A stretch of DNA of 36,322 nt from Betaproteobacteria bacterium SCGC AG-212-J23. Lineage in GTDB: Bacteria > Pseudomonadota > Gammaproteobacteria > Burkholderiales > SG8-39. Of the stretch, positions 14,559 through 21,171 are shown piece after piece; the stretch's first letter is position 1, and every line of letters begins with the position of its first letter. A program made the position numbers and the translations under genes. Under the pieces are notes generated by a model. It ran no database searches and was not told the DNA's origin. It saw nothing but the letters and a program-made list of their open reading frames with translations. The stretch lies in assembly GCA_001644455.1 (NCBI GenBank), contig LSTF01000034.1, positions 1-36,322 of the forward strand, in the 5' to 3' direction.

Positions 14559-15041
14559 CTGCTGTGTCATCCCGGGTTCCGCAGCAGCGCCGTTCGTAGC
14601 CTGCGGGCCCGAGTGCGGAGGATGCCCTCCGGCGCGCTCGCCGTGAACTTCAAGCTCGACGCCGACCTCGAACGCCTGCAAATTCCCTCGCGCCGGCCGC
14701 GCCGTTTCCGGGACGGTTTGTGGCGGCACACCTGCTTCGAAGTCTTCGTCGCGACGCGCGCACGCGCGTACCAGGAATACAACTTGTCGCCTTCCAGCGA
14801 GTGGGCGAGTTACGCGTTTTCCTCTTATCGGAAACGCGCTGCCGCAACCCCCCTGCCTCCACGCATCAGAGTTCGGCGCAATGGTCTGGACGCGACGATT
14901 GCAGCGAAGGGCCGCTTGAAGATCGGCCTCTGCGCCGTGATCGAGGAAAAGAACGGCTCGCTTTCGTACTGGGCGCTGCGCCATCCGCGCGGCAAGCCGG
15001 ACTTCCACCACCGGCGCGCCTTCGCGCTGGAGCTCGGGTGA
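14559..15041 (+). CDS. DOMON-like domain protein, probable non-ATG start
   Basis: A beta-sandwich protein resembling the DOMON-like group found beside cell-wall genes (named for its association with murB). Readable motifs are LLCHPGF near the start, DGLWRHTCFEVFVATR, YQEYNLSPSSEWASYAF and YWALRHPRGKPDFHH. The HTCFEVF and NLSPSSEWA blocks are the family hallmark as I recall it. The first ATG/GTG/TTG codon in frame is GTG at 14613, but homologues begin about 18 residues earlier, including the LxCHPG segment. That segment is encoded here in frame, with CTG codons at 14559 and 14562 as the only possible starts. Coordinates here use 14559; the conservative start is 14613. The stop overlaps the NamZ start by four bases (GTGA). 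Confidence 0.7.
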   Translation: MLCHPGFRSSAVRSLRARVRRMPSGALAVNFKLDADLERLQIPSRRPRRFRDGLWRHTCFEVFVATRARAYQEYNLSPSSEWASYAFSSYRKRAAATPLPPRIRVRRNGLDATIAAKGRLKIGLCAVIEEKNGSLSYWALRHPRGKPDFHHRRAFALELG

Positions 15042-16243
15042 AGTTCGGCATCGACCGGCTGATCGAGTCGCCCGCGCTGCGCGAGCGGCTCGCCGGCAGG
15101 CGCGTCGCGTTGCTCGCGCACCCGGCTTCGGTGACGCGCGGCCTCGCGCATTCGCTCGATGCGCTGGCCGCGCTGCCGGAGGTGAAGCTCGCGGCGGCAT
15201 TCGGTCCTCAGCACGGCCTGCGCGGCGACAAGCAGGACAACATGATCGAGTCGCCGGACTTCACCGACCCGGCACACGGCATCCCGGTGTTCAGCCTCTA
15301 CGGGAAGGTGCGCCGCCCGAGCGACGCGATGATGGGCGCGTTCGACGTGCTGCTCGTCGACCTGCAGGACGTCGGCTGCCGCGTCTACACCTTCGTCACC
15401 ACGCTGCGTTACGTGCTCGAGGCCGCTGCGCGGCACAAGAAGGCGGTCTGGGTCCTCGACCGGCCCAATCCCGCGGGACGCGAGGTCGAGGGCCTGCTGC
15501 TGCGCCCGGGCTGGGAGAGCTTCGTCGGCGCCGGCGCGCTGCCGATGCGCCACGGCCTGACCCTGGGCGAGCTGGCGCGCTGGTTCGTGCGCTCGCTGAA
15601 GATCGACGTCGAGCTCGAAGTGGTCGAGATGGAGGGCTGGAAGCCCGCGCAGGCGCCGGGCTTCGGCTGGCCGCTCGGCGAGCGTGCCTGGGTGAATCCC
15701 AGCCCGAACGCGCCGAACCTGTGGATGGCGCGCTGCTATGCGGGCACCGTGATGCTCGAAGGCACGACGCTCTCCGAAGGACGCGGCACCACGCGTCCGC
15801 TGGAGCTCTTCGGCGCGCCGAACCTCGATGCCGATCGGCTGTTGAAGCGGATGGCCGAGCTCGCCCCCGACTGGCTGCACGGCTGCACGCTGCGCCCGTG
15901 CTGGTTCGAGCCCACTTTCCACAAGCATGTCGGCAAGCTCTGCAGCGGCCTGCAGATCCATGTCGAGGACGGCGGCTACGATCCCGTCGCGTTCCGTCCC
16001 TGGCGGCTGATGGCGCTCGCGTTCAAGGCGGTGCGCTCGCTGCGGCCCGACTATCCCCTGTGGCGCGATTTCGCGTACGAGTACGAGCAGGGCCGGCTCG
16101 CCATCGACGTCATCAATGGCGGCGAGCGCCTGCGCAAGTGGGTCGACGACGCGGCCGCCCGGCCGGGGGATCTCGATGCCGAGGCGCGTAAGGACGAGCA
16201 GGCCTGGCGCGACGAACGCGAAGGCATGCTGATCTACCGATGA
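15038..16243 (+). CDS. NamZ-type exo-beta-N-acetylmuramidase (DUF1343)
   Basis: A 401-residue protein of the DUF1343 family, whose characterised members (NamZ of Bacillus subtilis and a Tannerella enzyme) remove terminal MurNAc from peptidoglycan fragments. Characteristic segments are LLAHPASVTRG, FGPQHGLRGDKQDNM, PVFSLYG, LLVDLQDVGCRVYTFVTTL, VLDRPNPAGREVEG, PMRHGLTLGELA, WVNPSPNAPNL and LSEGRGTTRPLELFGAP. No signal peptide is visible, so cytoplasmic recycling is more likely than secretion. The GTG start overlaps the stop of the DOMON-like gene, and the TGA overlaps the ATG of the cyclase gene, so all three are probably translated together. This places muropeptide recycling next to a nucleotide second messenger enzyme. 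Confidence 0.9.
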   Translation: MKFGIDRLIESPALRERLAGRRVALLAHPASVTRGLAHSLDALAALPEVKLAAAFGPQHGLRGDKQDNMIESPDFTDPAHGIPVFSLYGKVRRPSDAMMGAFDVLLVDLQDVGCRVYTFVTTLRYVLEAAARHKKAVWVLDRPNPAGREVEGLLLRPGWESFVGAGALPMRHGLTLGELARWFVRSLKIDVELEVVEMEGWKPAQAPGFGWPLGERAWVNPSPNAPNLWMARCYAGTVMLEGTTLSEGRGTTRPLELFGAPNLDADRLLKRMAELAPDWLHGCTLRPCWFEPTFHKHVGKLCSGLQIHVEDGGYDPVAFRPWRLMALAFKAVRSLRPDYPLWRDFAYEYEQGRLAIDVINGGERLRKWVDDAAARPGDLDAEARKDEQAWRDEREGMLIYR

Positions 16244-17781
16244 AGGGCAAGCAGGAAGCCGGGTACGAGATCCGCTTCGAGAAGAATTCCCGCCGGGTCT
16301 GGGTGGAATTCAACTGCGAGGCGGTCGCGGATTCGACGCGGGCGCTGGTCTTGCACGAAACCCGGCTCGCGCCGGTGGTCTATTTCCCGCGCGAGGATGT
16401 GCGCTTCGATCTCTTCGAGAAGACCGCCCACACCACGCATTGCCCGTTCAAGGGCGACGCCAGCTACTGGACCCTGAAGGTCGGCGGCGCGACGTCTGAG
16501 AACGCCGCCTGGTCCTACGACGATCCGTACGACGATGCGGCGCCGCTGCGCGAGCACCTCGCTTTCTATCCGAACCGCGTCGGCGCCATCTACGACGGAG
16601 AGGACGAGGCGCCGCACCTCGCCGCTGCAACGCACGCGCCGAGCATCAGCGGCTGGCTGCTCGCCGAGGCGTGGAAGATCGCCAGCGAAGAGGAGCTGAT
16701 GGACCGCTTCTGCCGCTGCCTGCAGGACGCCGGCGTGCCGATTTCGCGCATGACGATCATCATCCCGGCGCTGCATCCGCAGGTGTTCGCCAACGTGCTC
16801 GTCTGGCGCCACGACAGCGGCGCGAAGACCATCCATGAGCCGTACGACATCCTGCACACGCCGCGCTTCAAGGACAGCCCGTTCGCGCTCATCCTGCGCG
16901 GCGCGGGCGGCGTGCGGCGGCGGATCGAGCGCCCGGAGACGAAGCTCGACTTCCCGGTGGTGCGCGACCTCAAGGCCGAGAACGCCACCGACTACGTCGC
17001 CATGCCGTTCCGCTTCTCGGACGGACAGTTGAACGTGATGTCGATGACGTCGTTCGCGCCGGGCGGTTTTTCCACCGACCACCTCGGCCGCGTGTTCGAG
17101 GTGCTGCCGGGCCTCGCGCGCTTTTTCGAAGTCTTCGCCCAGCGGCGCACCGCGGTGACGCTGCTCAGGACCTATCTCGGCCATCGCACCGGCGAGCGCG
17201 TGCTCGCCGGCCAGGTGCGGCACGGCGACGGCGAGCTCATCCATAGCGTCATCTGGTTCTCCGACCTGCGCGGCTCGACCATGCTCTCCAAGTCGATGGC
17301 GACGGACGCGTATCTCGCGCTCCTCAATCGCTACTTCGACTGCCTGGCGGGCGCGGTGATCGGCAGCGGCGGCGAGGTGCTGCGCTTCATCGGCGACGCG
17401 GTGCTGGCGATCTTCCCGATCACCGGCGCCGATCCGCGCGACGCCTGCCGGCGCGCGGTCGAGGCGGCGAAGGCGGCCTGCCGCTGCGTCGAGGAATCGA
17501 ACCGCGTCCGGCCGGGCGAGGAGCCGGTCCGCTTCGGCGTCGGCCTGCACCTCGGCGACGTGACCTACGGCAACATCGGCGTGCGCGAGCGGCTGGAATT
17601 CACGGTCATCGGCGCATCGGCCAACGAAGCGGCGCGCGTCGAGAGCATGTGCAAGACGCTGGGCGAGTCAGTCGTGATCTCGAGCGCGTTCGCCGCCGCC
17701 CACGAGGCGAAGCTGAAGCCGCTCGGCCGCCACGAGCTGAAGGACGTCGCGGGCAGCCAGGAGCTGTTTACTCTGCCTTAG
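16240..17781 (+). CDS. DUF427-class III nucleotidyl cyclase fusion
   Basis: A 513-residue fusion. Residues about 9-117 match the DUF427 fold (RVWVEFNCEAVADSTRALVLHET, TAHTTHCPFKGDASYW, YPNRVGAI). Residues about 135-300 form a middle region, perhaps GAF-like. Residues about 330-510 are a class III cyclase domain: metal-binding Asp342 (WFSDLRGST) and Asp386 (RFIGDAVLAIF), with Asn462 and Arg466 in GASANEAARVE as transition-state residues. The classical Lys and Asp that select adenine are Arg382 and Ala459 here, so the product (cAMP or cGMP) is uncertain. No membrane segments or signal peptide are seen. The ATG overlaps the NamZ stop as ATGA. The last 14 bases overlap the converging Bug gene. 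DUF427 may bind a small ligand and regulate cyclase activity; this is inference. Confidence 0.88.
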   Translation: MKGKQEAGYEIRFEKNSRRVWVEFNCEAVADSTRALVLHETRLAPVVYFPREDVRFDLFEKTAHTTHCPFKGDASYWTLKVGGATSENAAWSYDDPYDDAAPLREHLAFYPNRVGAIYDGEDEAPHLAAATHAPSISGWLLAEAWKIASEEELMDRFCRCLQDAGVPISRMTIIIPALHPQVFANVLVWRHDSGAKTIHEPYDILHTPRFKDSPFALILRGAGGVRRRIERPETKLDFPVVRDLKAENATDYVAMPFRFSDGQLNVMSMTSFAPGGFSTDHLGRVFEVLPGLARFFEVFAQRRTAVTLLRTYLGHRTGERVLAGQVRHGDGELIHSVIWFSDLRGSTMLSKSMATDAYLALLNRYFDCLAGAVIGSGGEVLRFIGDAVLAIFPITGADPRDACRRAVEAAKAACRCVEESNRVRPGEEPVRFGVGLHLGDVTYGNIGVRERLEFTVIGASANEAARVESMCKTLGESVVISSAFAAAHEAKLKPLGRHELKDVAGSQELFTLP

Positions 17782-18724
17782 CGCCGGTCTCGCGCACGAT
17801 CCGCGACCACTTTTCGCGCTCGGCGCGCAGGAACGTCTCGTATTCCGGCGGCGAGCTGCCGATCACCTCGAACCCCTGGCTCTCGAGAATCTGCCGCACG
17901 TCGGGTGCGCGCATCGCCTTTTGGGTTTCTTTTGAAATGCGCTCGGCAGCGTCCGGAGGTATCCCCGCAGGGCTTAACAAGCCTTGCCACGCTGTTGCAT
18001 CGAAGTAAGCAAAGCCCTGCTCGGCGACCGTCGCGATGTCCGGCGCGAGGGAAGTGCGCTTCGCGCTCGTCACCGCGAGCCCCTTGAGCCTTCCCGAGCG
18101 AATCTGCGGCAGCACCGCAGGCACGATCGCGAACGTGGCCTGGATCTGTCCGGAAAGGAGATCCTGTACCGCCGGCGGGAAACCTTTGTAGGGCACGTGC
18201 ACGAGCGCGATCCTGGCCTGCGACTTGAGCAGCTCCATGGTGAGGTGCGAGGCGCTGCCCGCGCCGACCGAGCCGTAGGAAAGCTTGTCGGGATTGGCGC
18301 GCGCATATTCGACGAACTGCTTCAGGTCGCCCGCCGGTACCGACGGGTGCACGACCAGCACCTGTGGCGCGGCCGCAAGGAGCGAGATCGGTTTCAGGTC
18401 CCGGGCCGGGCTGTACGGCAGATCCTTGTAGAGCGCCTGGTTGACCGCGATCGGGCCGTTGCTGCCAATCAGCAGCGTGTATCCGTCGCGCAGCGCGCGA
18501 GCCACCTCGGCGGTGCCGATGTTGCCGCCGGCGCCGGGCCTGTTGTCGATGATCACCGGCTGGCCCCAGGCTTCGGCGAGCTTCTGCCCGAGGGTGCGGC
18601 CGACGATGTCGGGCGTGGAACCGACGGGGAAGGGCACGATCAGCCGCACCGGCCGCGACGGCCAGGTCTGCGCGTGCGCGAGGCATGCCGCCGCGAGCGC
18701 GATGAGGAATAATGGAATACGCAT
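17768..18724 (-). CDS. Bug/TctC-type binding protein
   Basis: A 318-residue periplasmic binding protein of the Bug family. The signal peptide is about residues 1-18 (ending LAHAQ). Motifs: VRLIVPFPVGSTPD, IIDNRPGAGGNIG, LSYGSVGAGS and HVPYKGFPPAVQDLLSG. The PFPVGSTPD loop differs from the more common PFxxGGxxD, and Ser replaces the second Gly, which could affect the carboxylate-binding loop. It has no adjacent TctA/TctB genes. GAAGG abuts the ATG at 18724, so no well-spaced ribosome binding site is seen. It is divergent from the exported cupin, with 27 bases between starts, so both may be controlled together. Its end overlaps the cyclase end. Confidence 0.9.
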   Translation of the reverse strand: MRIPLFLIALAAACLAHAQTWPSRPVRLIVPFPVGSTPDIVGRTLGQKLAEAWGQPVIIDNRPGAGGNIGTAEVARALRDGYTLLIGSNGPIAVNQALYKDLPYSPARDLKPISLLAAAPQVLVVHPSVPAGDLKQFVEYARANPDKLSYGSVGAGSASHLTMELLKSQARIALVHVPYKGFPPAVQDLLSGQIQATFAIVPAVLPQIRSGRLKGLAVTSAKRTSLAPDIATVAEQGFAYFDATAWQGLLSPAGIPPDAAERISKETQKAMRAPDVRQILESQGFEVIGSSPPEYETFLRAEREKWSRIVRETGAKAE

Positions 18725-20214: not shown

Positions 20215-21171
20215 TCAGTCGACCTTCGCGCCGGAGGTCTTGACGACCTTCGCCCACTTTTCGACGTCCGCGCGCAGGAACTTGTCGAACGCATCGATCG
20301 ACATGCCCATCGGCTGCGCGCCCTGCTTGCCCCAGGTCTCGCGGACTTCGGCCGTGGCGAGGATCTTGTTGATCTCGACGTTCAGCTTCTCGAGGATCGG
20401 CCTCGGCGTGCCCGCCGGCGCCATCATGCCGAGCCAGATCGTGGTTTCGTACCCGGGCACGCCCGCCTCGGCGACCGTCGGCACGTCGGGCGATACCGGC
20501 GAGCGCTTCGCGCCGGTCGTGCCCAGCGCGCGCACCTTGCCGGCCTTGGCGTTGGCATTCATCGTCGTGATGGCGTCGAACATCATCTGCACCTGGCCGC
20601 CGAGGATGGCGGTGCGCGCCTGGTCGCTGCCCTTGTGCGGCACATGCACGATGTCGACTCCGGCCATCGATTTGAAGAGCTCGCCCGCCATGTGGTACGG
20701 CGTGCCGGTGCCGGAGGACGCGTAGTTGAGCTTGCCGGGGTTCGCCTTGGCGTAGGCGATGAATTCCTTCAGGTTCTGCGCCGGCACCGAGGGATGGATC
20801 ACCATCATCAGGTCCGAGTAATTGATGCCGCTGATCGGCGCGAAATCCTTCATCAGCTCGAACGGTTTTTTCGGCACCAGCGTCTCGTTGACGGTATGCG
20901 TGTTCGACATCACGAGCAGCGTGTACCCGTCGGCGGGCGACTTCGCCACCGCGTCGGTGCCGACGATCGAGCCGGCGCCCGGGCGATCCTCGATCACGAA
21001 CGGATGTCCCAGGGCGTCCTGCAGCTTGGCGGCGATGAACCGTCCGAAAATGTCGGCCGGGCCGCCGACGCCGAAGGGAACGACCACCTTGACCGGCCGC
21101 GCCGGATAGTTTTGCGCCGAAGACGAGAACGACGCGAGCGCGCAAAGCGTTGCGATCAAGCTGCGAAGCAT
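20215..21171 (-). CDS. Bug/TctC-type binding protein divergent from denD-like gene
   Basis: A 318-residue periplasmic binding protein of the Bug family, with a signal peptide ending SFSSSAQ. Motifs: VKVVVPFGVGGPADIF, VIEDRPGAGSIVGTD, LNYASSGTGTPYHMAGE and HVPHKGSDQARTAILGGQ. A strong AGGAGGAG ribosome binding site precedes the ATG at 21171. It is divergent from the dehydrogenase-like gene, with only 30 bases between start codons, so a common regulatory region and a related substrate (for instance a hydroxy-acid) are plausible. No membrane subunits of a tripartite tricarboxylate transporter occur in the window, whereas a full TRAP transporter lies about 3 kb away. Confidence 0.9.
   Translation of the reverse strand: MLRSLIATLCALASFSSSAQNYPARPVKVVVPFGVGGPADIFGRFIAAKLQDALGHPFVIEDRPGAGSIVGTDAVAKSPADGYTLLVMSNTHTVNETLVPKKPFELMKDFAPISGINYSDLMMVIHPSVPAQNLKEFIAYAKANPGKLNYASSGTGTPYHMAGELFKSMAGVDIVHVPHKGSDQARTAILGGQVQMMFDAITTMNANAKAGKVRALGTTGAKRSPVSPDVPTVAEAGVPGYETTIWLGMMAPAGTPRPILEKLNVEINKILATAEVRETWGKQGAQPMGMSIDAFDKFLRADVEKWAKVVKTSGAKVD

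What the first reader, a model, noticed from the sequence alone, without database searches (positions are those of the whole stretch)
16240..17781. DUF427 domain fused to a class III nucleotidyl cyclase
One uninterrupted frame joins a DUF427-like N-terminus (about residues 9-117), an unassigned middle region and a complete class III cyclase catalytic domain. DUF427 is usually a stand-alone domain of unknown function. Its fusion to a second-messenger enzyme suggests that it senses a small ligand. I am not aware of an experimental description of such a fusion.
Basis: partly seen in the sequence, partly recalled or inferred. Interest (0 to 1): 0.62.

Follow-up and report, generated by a model that had tools for sequence, protein, structure and literature searches.

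The report
DUF427-GAF adenylate cyclase protein family
This bacterial gene joins a domain of unknown function to an enzyme of the kind that makes the signal molecule cyclic AMP; the same three-part protein is conserved in distant proteobacteria, so the enzyme could serve as a readout for what the unknown domain senses.

Summary
Window 16240-17781 (+) is one 513-aa frame: DUF427 (residues 22-111, 112.9 bits, cut-off 22.1) and a class III cyclase domain (338-482, 40.3 bits, cut-off 21.9) with metal-binding and transition-state residues intact. The 'unassigned' middle is best read as a very divergent GAF domain, recognised through relatives, not in the window protein itself. It is no artefact: the whole protein occurs in 14 of 98 genomes of the window's family, in two further families of the class, in 22 of 295 genomes of a more distant family and on two Parasedimentitalea plasmids. 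The GAF-cyclase part of 20 fused proteins forms one clade (99/99). DUF427 keeps six residues fixed in stand-alone copies, though five other conserved positions have relaxed; R42 is in 43 of 43 fused and 0 of 32 stand-alone copies. Most likely a soluble cyclic-nucleotide-forming enzyme with DUF427 and GAF-like inputs. Activity and ligand are not shown. Passages of all 8 library papers naming DUF427 describe no such fusion. New variant of a known kind.

The parts
16240..17781 (+). whole gene, DUF427-GAF-like-class III cyclase, 513 aa
16303..16572 (+). DUF427 domain (PF04248), residues 22-111
16363..16365 (+). R42, arginine in 43 of 43 fused DUF427s and 0 of 32 stand-alone ones
16468..16518 (+). 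residues W77 to Y93: residue 77 (variable), W91 and Y93 (invariant), proposed ligand pocket of the beta-tent fold
   Evidence: conservation; spacing compared with CULT and MsrB residues given in PMC4287342 (passage); inference
16642..17139 (+). divergent GAF-like domain, about residues 135-300
   Evidence: by homology:
17251..17685 (+). class III cyclase catalytic domain (PF00211), residues 338-482
17263..17265 (+). D342, first metal-binding aspartate (role recalled)
   Evidence: 43 of 43 fused
17383..17385 (+). R382, place of the base-selecting lysine (role recalled); R in 10 and K in 33 of 43 fused
17395..17397 (+). D386, second metal-binding aspartate (role recalled)
   Evidence: 43 of 43 fused
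17602..17604 (+). T455, second base-selecting position (role recalled)
   Evidence: T in 41 of 43 fused
17623..17637 (+). N462 to R466: N462 and R466, transition-state residues (roles recalled)
   Evidence: 42 and 43 of 43 fused
15029..16243 (+). upstream NamZ gene (exo-beta-N-acetylmuramidase); its stop overlaps the ATG of the cyclase gene by 4 bases (ATGA); start codon not determined
   Evidence: not a shared neighbour in the 13 other loci compared

Best explanation
A soluble, dimeric class III adenylate cyclase of the proteobacterial GAF-cyclase family that gained an N-terminal DUF427 domain, probably once. DUF427 and the GAF-like domain act as input domains: a cytoplasmic ligand (unknown) bound by DUF427 shifts the DUF427-GAF arrangement, the change passes through the stretch before the catalytic domain, and cAMP output changes; cAMP is read by cNMP-binding proteins. 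Shown: the architecture, its conservation in several distant proteobacterial families, intact catalytic residues, retained core signature of DUF427, purifying selection. Inferred: activity, product, dimer, ligand binding, direction of the effect.
For: Both domains above curated cut-offs. D342, D386, R466 in 43 of 43 and N462 in 42 of 43 fused proteins (one of the 43, L170, matches only to residue 394). Six DUF427 residues, E40, Y48, C68, G72, W91, Y93, are in 43 of 43 fused and 32 of 32 stand-alone copies. dN/dS of DUF427 0.13-0.24 in six pairs, against 0.03-0.36 for GAF and 0.07-0.24 for cyclase. 20 fused proteins are one clade, 99/99, in a tree of 58 built without DUF427, with no unfused row inside it. 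The family's middle domain is GAF-related. The window's genome has 4 class III cyclase matches and 12 cNMP-binding matches, 11 of them over the cut-off. In genus g2 the gene lies about 1.1 kb from a divergent Ser/Thr kinase gene, with a cNMP-binding domain over the cut-off in 3 of 4 scanned. No clear transmembrane stretch: highest 19-residue Kyte-Doolittle mean 1.42.
Against: No ligand, structure or activity is known. Five positions nearly or fully fixed in stand-alone DUF427s have relaxed in the fused ones: L59 (32 of 32 alone, 18 of 43 fused), K71 (32 of 32; 35 of 43, else R), P96 (31 of 32; 27 of 43), A108 (29 of 32; 14 of 43), Y110 (31 of 32; 14 of 43), so the function may differ from that of stand-alone copies. 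In the two alphaproteobacterial-type pairs DUF427 is the least conserved part (48 and 84% identity against 62-95% for the others). The base-selecting lysine is arginine here (R in 10 of 43 fused; R in 10 of 38 unfused), so ATP as substrate is not certain. Gene neighbours differ between groups. GAF is not detectable in the window protein directly. The DUF427 tree alone needs 2 changes (one clade not rejected, p 0.226). AlphaFold2 models were unusable.
Confidence: 0.57

Rival explanations
1. DUF427 is an interaction, dimerisation or targeting domain: it docks the cyclase to a partner protein or stabilises the dimer, without binding a small molecule.
For: R42 is in 43 of 43 fused and 0 of 32 stand-alone DUF427s, as an interdomain contact would be. 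MSS4, another beta-tent protein, acts on a Rab GTPase (PMC4287342 passage).
Against: Six strictly kept residues are the same in stand-alone DUF427s that have no cyclase attached, which points to a function inside DUF427 itself.
Confidence: 0.22
2. DUF427 is an enzyme (it carries an invariant Cys68 and a Lys or Arg at 71) and the fusion couples a chemical step to cAMP formation.
For: C68 in 43 of 43 fused and 32 of 32 stand-alone; K71 in 32 of 32 stand-alone, K or R in 43 of 43 fused. Pfam's short name NTP_transf_9 suggests a transferase.
Against: No activity is known; the name alone is no test; residue 71 is R in 8 of 43 fused.
Confidence: 0.12
3. DUF427 is a passenger with no part in regulation.
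For: GAF-cyclase relatives exist without it: 36 of 398 phylum-sample genomes have a core match and no fused copy among the up to three candidates scored per genome. Five DUF427 positions have relaxed in the fused set.
Against: DUF427 is under purifying selection, keeps six fixed residues, and no unfused protein falls inside the fused clade in the 58-row tree (the fused rows were chosen for having DUF427, so their having it is no evidence).
Confidence: 0.08
4. Assembly artefact or two genes read as one.
For: None found.
Against: Same one-frame architecture in many separate assemblies, two of them complete plasmids.
Confidence: 0.01

Closest known systems
Proteobacterial GAF-cyclase family (annotated adenylate/guanylate cyclase domain-containing protein; e.g. 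Sinorhizobium plasmid copies)
   Same: Middle and catalytic parts align over about residues 136-513 at 30-45% identity
   Different: No DUF427 at the N-terminus
DUF427 / PF04248 stand-alone proteins, solved example 3djm
   Same: Six fixed residues shared; 3djm matches at E 1.5e-18 by sequence
   Different: No cyclase attached; none of 32 has R42; L59, K71, P96, A108, Y110 more strictly kept
WP_127751513.1 and WP_270919704.1, Parasedimentitalea plasmids, annotated only as DUF427 domain-containing protein
   Same: Whole architecture, 40% identity over 98-99% of the protein
   Different: Other gene neighbours (chemotaxis genes)
CULT domain of cereblon and MsrB (beta-tent fold)
   Same: Fold shared by 3DJM according to PMC4287342 (passages); spacing of residues 77, 91, 93 equals CULT W85-W99-Y101 and MsrB R97-H111-F113
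   Different: No zinc site in DUF427 (passage); no profile similarity to MsrB

Membership tests
Class III nucleotidyl cyclase | Guanylate_cyc profile above curated cut-off | tested here: met
   40.3 against 21.9 bits
Class III nucleotidyl cyclase | two metal-binding Asp, and Asn plus Arg of the transition state (roles recalled) | tested here: met
   D342, D386, N462, R466
Class III nucleotidyl cyclase | base-selecting Lys and Asp/Thr pair of adenylate cyclases (recalled) | tested here: inconclusive
   R382 and T455; K in 33 and R in 10 of 43 fused
Class III nucleotidyl cyclase | cyclic nucleotide formation as a dimer | not testable with these tools
   needs purified protein
DUF427 (PF04248) | profile above curated cut-off | tested here: met
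   112.9 against 22.1 bits
DUF427 (PF04248) | residues fixed in 32 of 32 stand-alone copies | tested here: inconclusive
   E40, Y48, C68, G72, W91, Y93 kept in 43 of 43 fused; L59 and K71 not always; the window has F59 and K71
DUF427 (PF04248) | beta-tent fold | tested here: inconclusive
   models pLDDT 36.0 and 32.8; sequence match to 3djm only
GAF domain | profile match of this protein | tested here: not met
   no match at E 1 for the window middle
GAF domain | homologues aligned over the same region match GAF | tested here: met
   18 of 57 match GAF_2, best 2e-7; (relation to the cut-off not shown there)
CULT/MsrB-type beta-tent binding site | zinc-binding cysteine pairs | not tested
   reported absent from DUF427 in PMC4287342 (passage)
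CULT/MsrB-type beta-tent binding site | detectable profile similarity | tested here: not met
   hhalign to 21 MsrB sequences: probability 0.05% and, with trimmed columns, 0.07-0.08%; control of fused against stand-alone DUF427 gave 100%, E 1.4e-50

The most novel reading that the evidence does not exclude
DUF427 is a small-molecule receptor domain of the beta-tent fold whose pocket is the site formed by residue 77 (mostly W, R, Y or F) with W91 and Y93, placed like the ligand cage of CULT (W85-W99-Y101) and the substrate site of MsrB (R97-H111-F113); in this family it drives a cyclase, so cAMP output would reveal the first DUF427 ligand.
Probability: 0.25. Interest if true: 0.72.

Novelty: new variant of a known kind. 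Interest (0 to 1): 0.5.

Why it matters
DUF427 is widespread and has a solved structure (3djm), but no function was found for it in the passages read. A natural fusion to an enzyme with an easy readout makes its function directly testable: cAMP production can be screened against metabolites, and an arginine present in 43 of 43 fused and 0 of 32 stand-alone copies gives a precise mutation to test coupling. It also adds an input domain to the class III cyclases that I did not find described.

Tried and rejected

Sequence link of the middle region to a solved structure: none (best E 0.11, Why2). Rejected as chance.

Operon logic: NamZ overlaps the window gene but is not next to the gene in the 13 other loci compared, so a peptidoglycan signal was not adopted. 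In the alphaproteobacterial-type set two small genes lie upstream on the same strand; the nearer one ends within 0.7 kb of the fused frame in 17 of 20 loci. It has hydrophobic stretches (by eye) and a weak match to a winged helix (E 1.9e-4 and 1.7e-4 in two copies, under the cut-off). Whether the two genes occur there without the fused gene was not tested.

DUF427 neighbours on plasmids (three regions read) showed no common partner.

MsrB comparison: 30 loci fetched; a motif filter kept 21. The first hhalign run used badly chosen columns (178 for a 122-aa domain) and was repeated with trimmed columns and a control; both found no similarity.

A viral scan for DUF427 found no relative; a scan for the GAF region could not be run.

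Literature: PMC6316151 and PMC13304343 were false leads; their passages concern DUF4278 and DUF4279. PMC11952752 appears to have DUF427 as a slip for DUF247. The word-start search gave 21 papers, the whole-word search 8.

Rows left out of counts: L046_D, a broken DUF427 frame; L038, with undetermined residues, from the 57 middles. L170 is counted among the 43 although its match ends at residue 394. Two of the 22 fused genomes had no locus and are not among the 43.

Full report
What is there. The frame at 16240-17781 (+) encodes 513 residues. DUF427 covers 22-111 and a class III cyclase domain 338-482, both over Pfam's cut-offs; NCBIfam has no model for the whole protein (only a lipase/cyclase at E 0.0082, 14.9 bits against a cut-off of 800). 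The ATG overlaps the stop of an upstream NamZ gene by four bases.

Is it chance or artefact? No. With the DUF427 part as query, 14 of 98 genomes of the window's family carry it in a frame of 521 aa or more. These stand apart from the other DUF427 matches there by E-value (4.1e-38 or better against 2.5e-30 or worse) and frame length (521 or more against 382 or less), though not by identity (48-100% against up to 53%). Matches over the whole protein were confirmed for the 13 besides the window. A 399-genome sample of the order gave matches spanning residues 5-328 in three genomes only, all of the window's family. The class sample (369 genomes, up to four candidates scored in each) gave two more families, G745 and G576; the phylum sample (398, up to three candidates in each) two more genomes, G904 and G946. 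Following these up: 22 of 295 genomes in the family of G904, 6 of 23 in that of G745, one matched only to model position 401, 1 of 2 in that of G576. Two Parasedimentitalea plasmids carry it at 40% identity and are annotated only as DUF427 domain-containing protein. Identity to the window protein, by blastp, runs from 38 to 66% over the fused proteins collected. The family of G904 groups with Parasedimentitalea (Alphaproteobacteria) at 100/100, so I call that set alphaproteobacterial-type.

Where it came from. The GAF-like plus cyclase core exists without DUF427 in many genomes (36 of 398 in the phylum sample had core matches and no fused copy among those scored) and on Rhizobium and Sinorhizobium plasmids. 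In a tree of 58 proteins built from residue 135 onward, the 20 fused ones form one clade (99/99, in 99% of bootstrap trees). The 23 fused proteins found later were not put in that tree. A tree of DUF427 alone (20 fused, 32 stand-alone) is weaker: two changes, one clade in 4% of bootstrap trees, but one clade not rejected (p 0.226). One fusion followed by spread or loss is the simplest reading; it is not proved.

The middle region. In an alignment of 57 middles (19 fused, 38 unfused), 18 match GAF_2 and 7 GAF at E up to 1. The window's own middle gives no match. Nine fused middles scanned singly gave one weak GAF_2 hit (E 0.071), and an unfused sister gave E 0.0011, both under the cut-off. I take it as a divergent GAF domain by homology.

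Catalytic state. D342, D386 and R466 are in 43 of 43 and N462 in 42 of 43 fused proteins. The position where adenylate cyclases have a base-binding lysine is arginine in the window protein and in 10 of 43 fused, lysine in 33; T455 is T in 41 of 43. So an active enzyme is likely and ATP the likelier substrate, but specificity is open. Roles of these residues are recalled knowledge.

DUF427 in the fusion. E40, Y48, C68, G72, W91 and Y93 are in 43 of 43 fused and 32 of 32 stand-alone copies. Against this, five positions that are nearly or fully fixed in stand-alone copies vary in the fused ones: L59, K71, P96, A108, Y110. P69 and A74 are fixed in the fused set only (43 of 43 against 23 and 22 of 32), and R42 separates the sets: 43 of 43 against 0 of 32. 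The 32 stand-alone copies were brought in by searches with this protein or its alignment and do not sample all of DUF427. dN/dS is 0.13-0.24 for DUF427 in six pairs, 0.03-0.36 for GAF, 0.07-0.24 for cyclase; a seventh pair was saturated. In both alphaproteobacterial-type pairs DUF427 is the least conserved part.

Possible pocket. PMC4287342 (passages) puts DUF427 in the beta-tent fold without a zinc site and without significant sequence similarity to the others, and lists ligand-site residues of CULT (W79, W85, W99, Y101) and MsrB (the last three at R97, H111, F113). DUF427 has W91 and Y93 invariant; residue 77, fourteen places before W91, is W in 21 and R in 14 of 43 fused (others Q, L, H, N) and Y 17, W 8, F 6, S 1 of 32 stand-alone. 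The spacing 0/+14/+16 is the same. The place of CULT's W79 would be residue 71, which is K or R. This is suggestive only: profile comparison with 21 MsrB sequences found nothing in two set-ups, while a control worked, and no usable model could be made.

Surroundings and readers of the signal. The window's genome, 60% complete, has 4 class III cyclase matches and 12 cNMP-binding matches, 11 over the cut-off. In the genus g2, 5 of 5 genomes held have the fusion and a kinase gene divergent from it; Pfam finds the kinase domain in 4 of 4 scanned and the cNMP-binding domain over the cut-off in 3, the fourth being cut by its contig end; the fifth was placed by similarity alone. A sixth locus (L069) has a kinase without a detected cNMP domain. 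In the alphaproteobacterial-type set other genes lie beside it. So the gene has different neighbours in different groups.

What is in print. The library holds 8 papers with the whole word DUF427. I read the passages that name it in all 8 (PMC4287342, PMC5307852, PMC3388012, PMC3037901, PMC11206017, PMC2602986, PMC11952752, PMC9104312), not the whole papers; none describes a fusion to a cyclase. Three papers hold DUF427 at the start of a word together with cyclase; passages of all three were read and the words are unrelated in each. Subscription journals are mostly not held.

Verdict. A real, conserved architecture that I did not find described: a class III cyclase with DUF427 and GAF-like inputs. 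A new variant of a known kind. Its value is that it makes the function of DUF427 testable.

Noticed in passing
L032:6610-9228 (+), G010:C391: Beside the fused cyclase lies one 872-aa frame with Rieske, VanA_C, Fer2 and class III cyclase domains: an oxygenase-like protein fused to a cyclase.
   Followed up: no
L037:11292-12454, L038:11265-12560, L070:10305-11600, L071:10613-11662, L072:1-1158: Ser/Thr protein kinase divergent from the fused cyclase in genus g2; a C-terminal cNMP-binding domain is over the cut-off in L037, L038 and L070.
   Followed up: partly
L171, L173, L174, L176, L177, L179-L188, L114, L115: Two overlapping small genes of unknown function (about 97 and 233 aa in Parasedimentitalea) upstream of the fused gene on the same strand; the nearer lies within 0.7 kb in 17 of 20 loci.
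   Followed up: partly
L170 (G1485:C1), match ends at window residue 394: A fused copy in a single-contig genome whose match lacks the C-terminal part of the cyclase domain.
   Followed up: partly
G016:C19:11240-12255 (L082): An unfused GAF-cyclase relative split over two frames, perhaps a frameshift.
   Followed up: no
G017:C22, G001:C195, G237:C325: Two DUF427 matches side by side, probably tandem domains in one frame.
   Followed up: no
window 17768-18724 and 20215-21171 (-): Two TctC-type solute receptor genes downstream of the cyclase gene.
   Followed up: no
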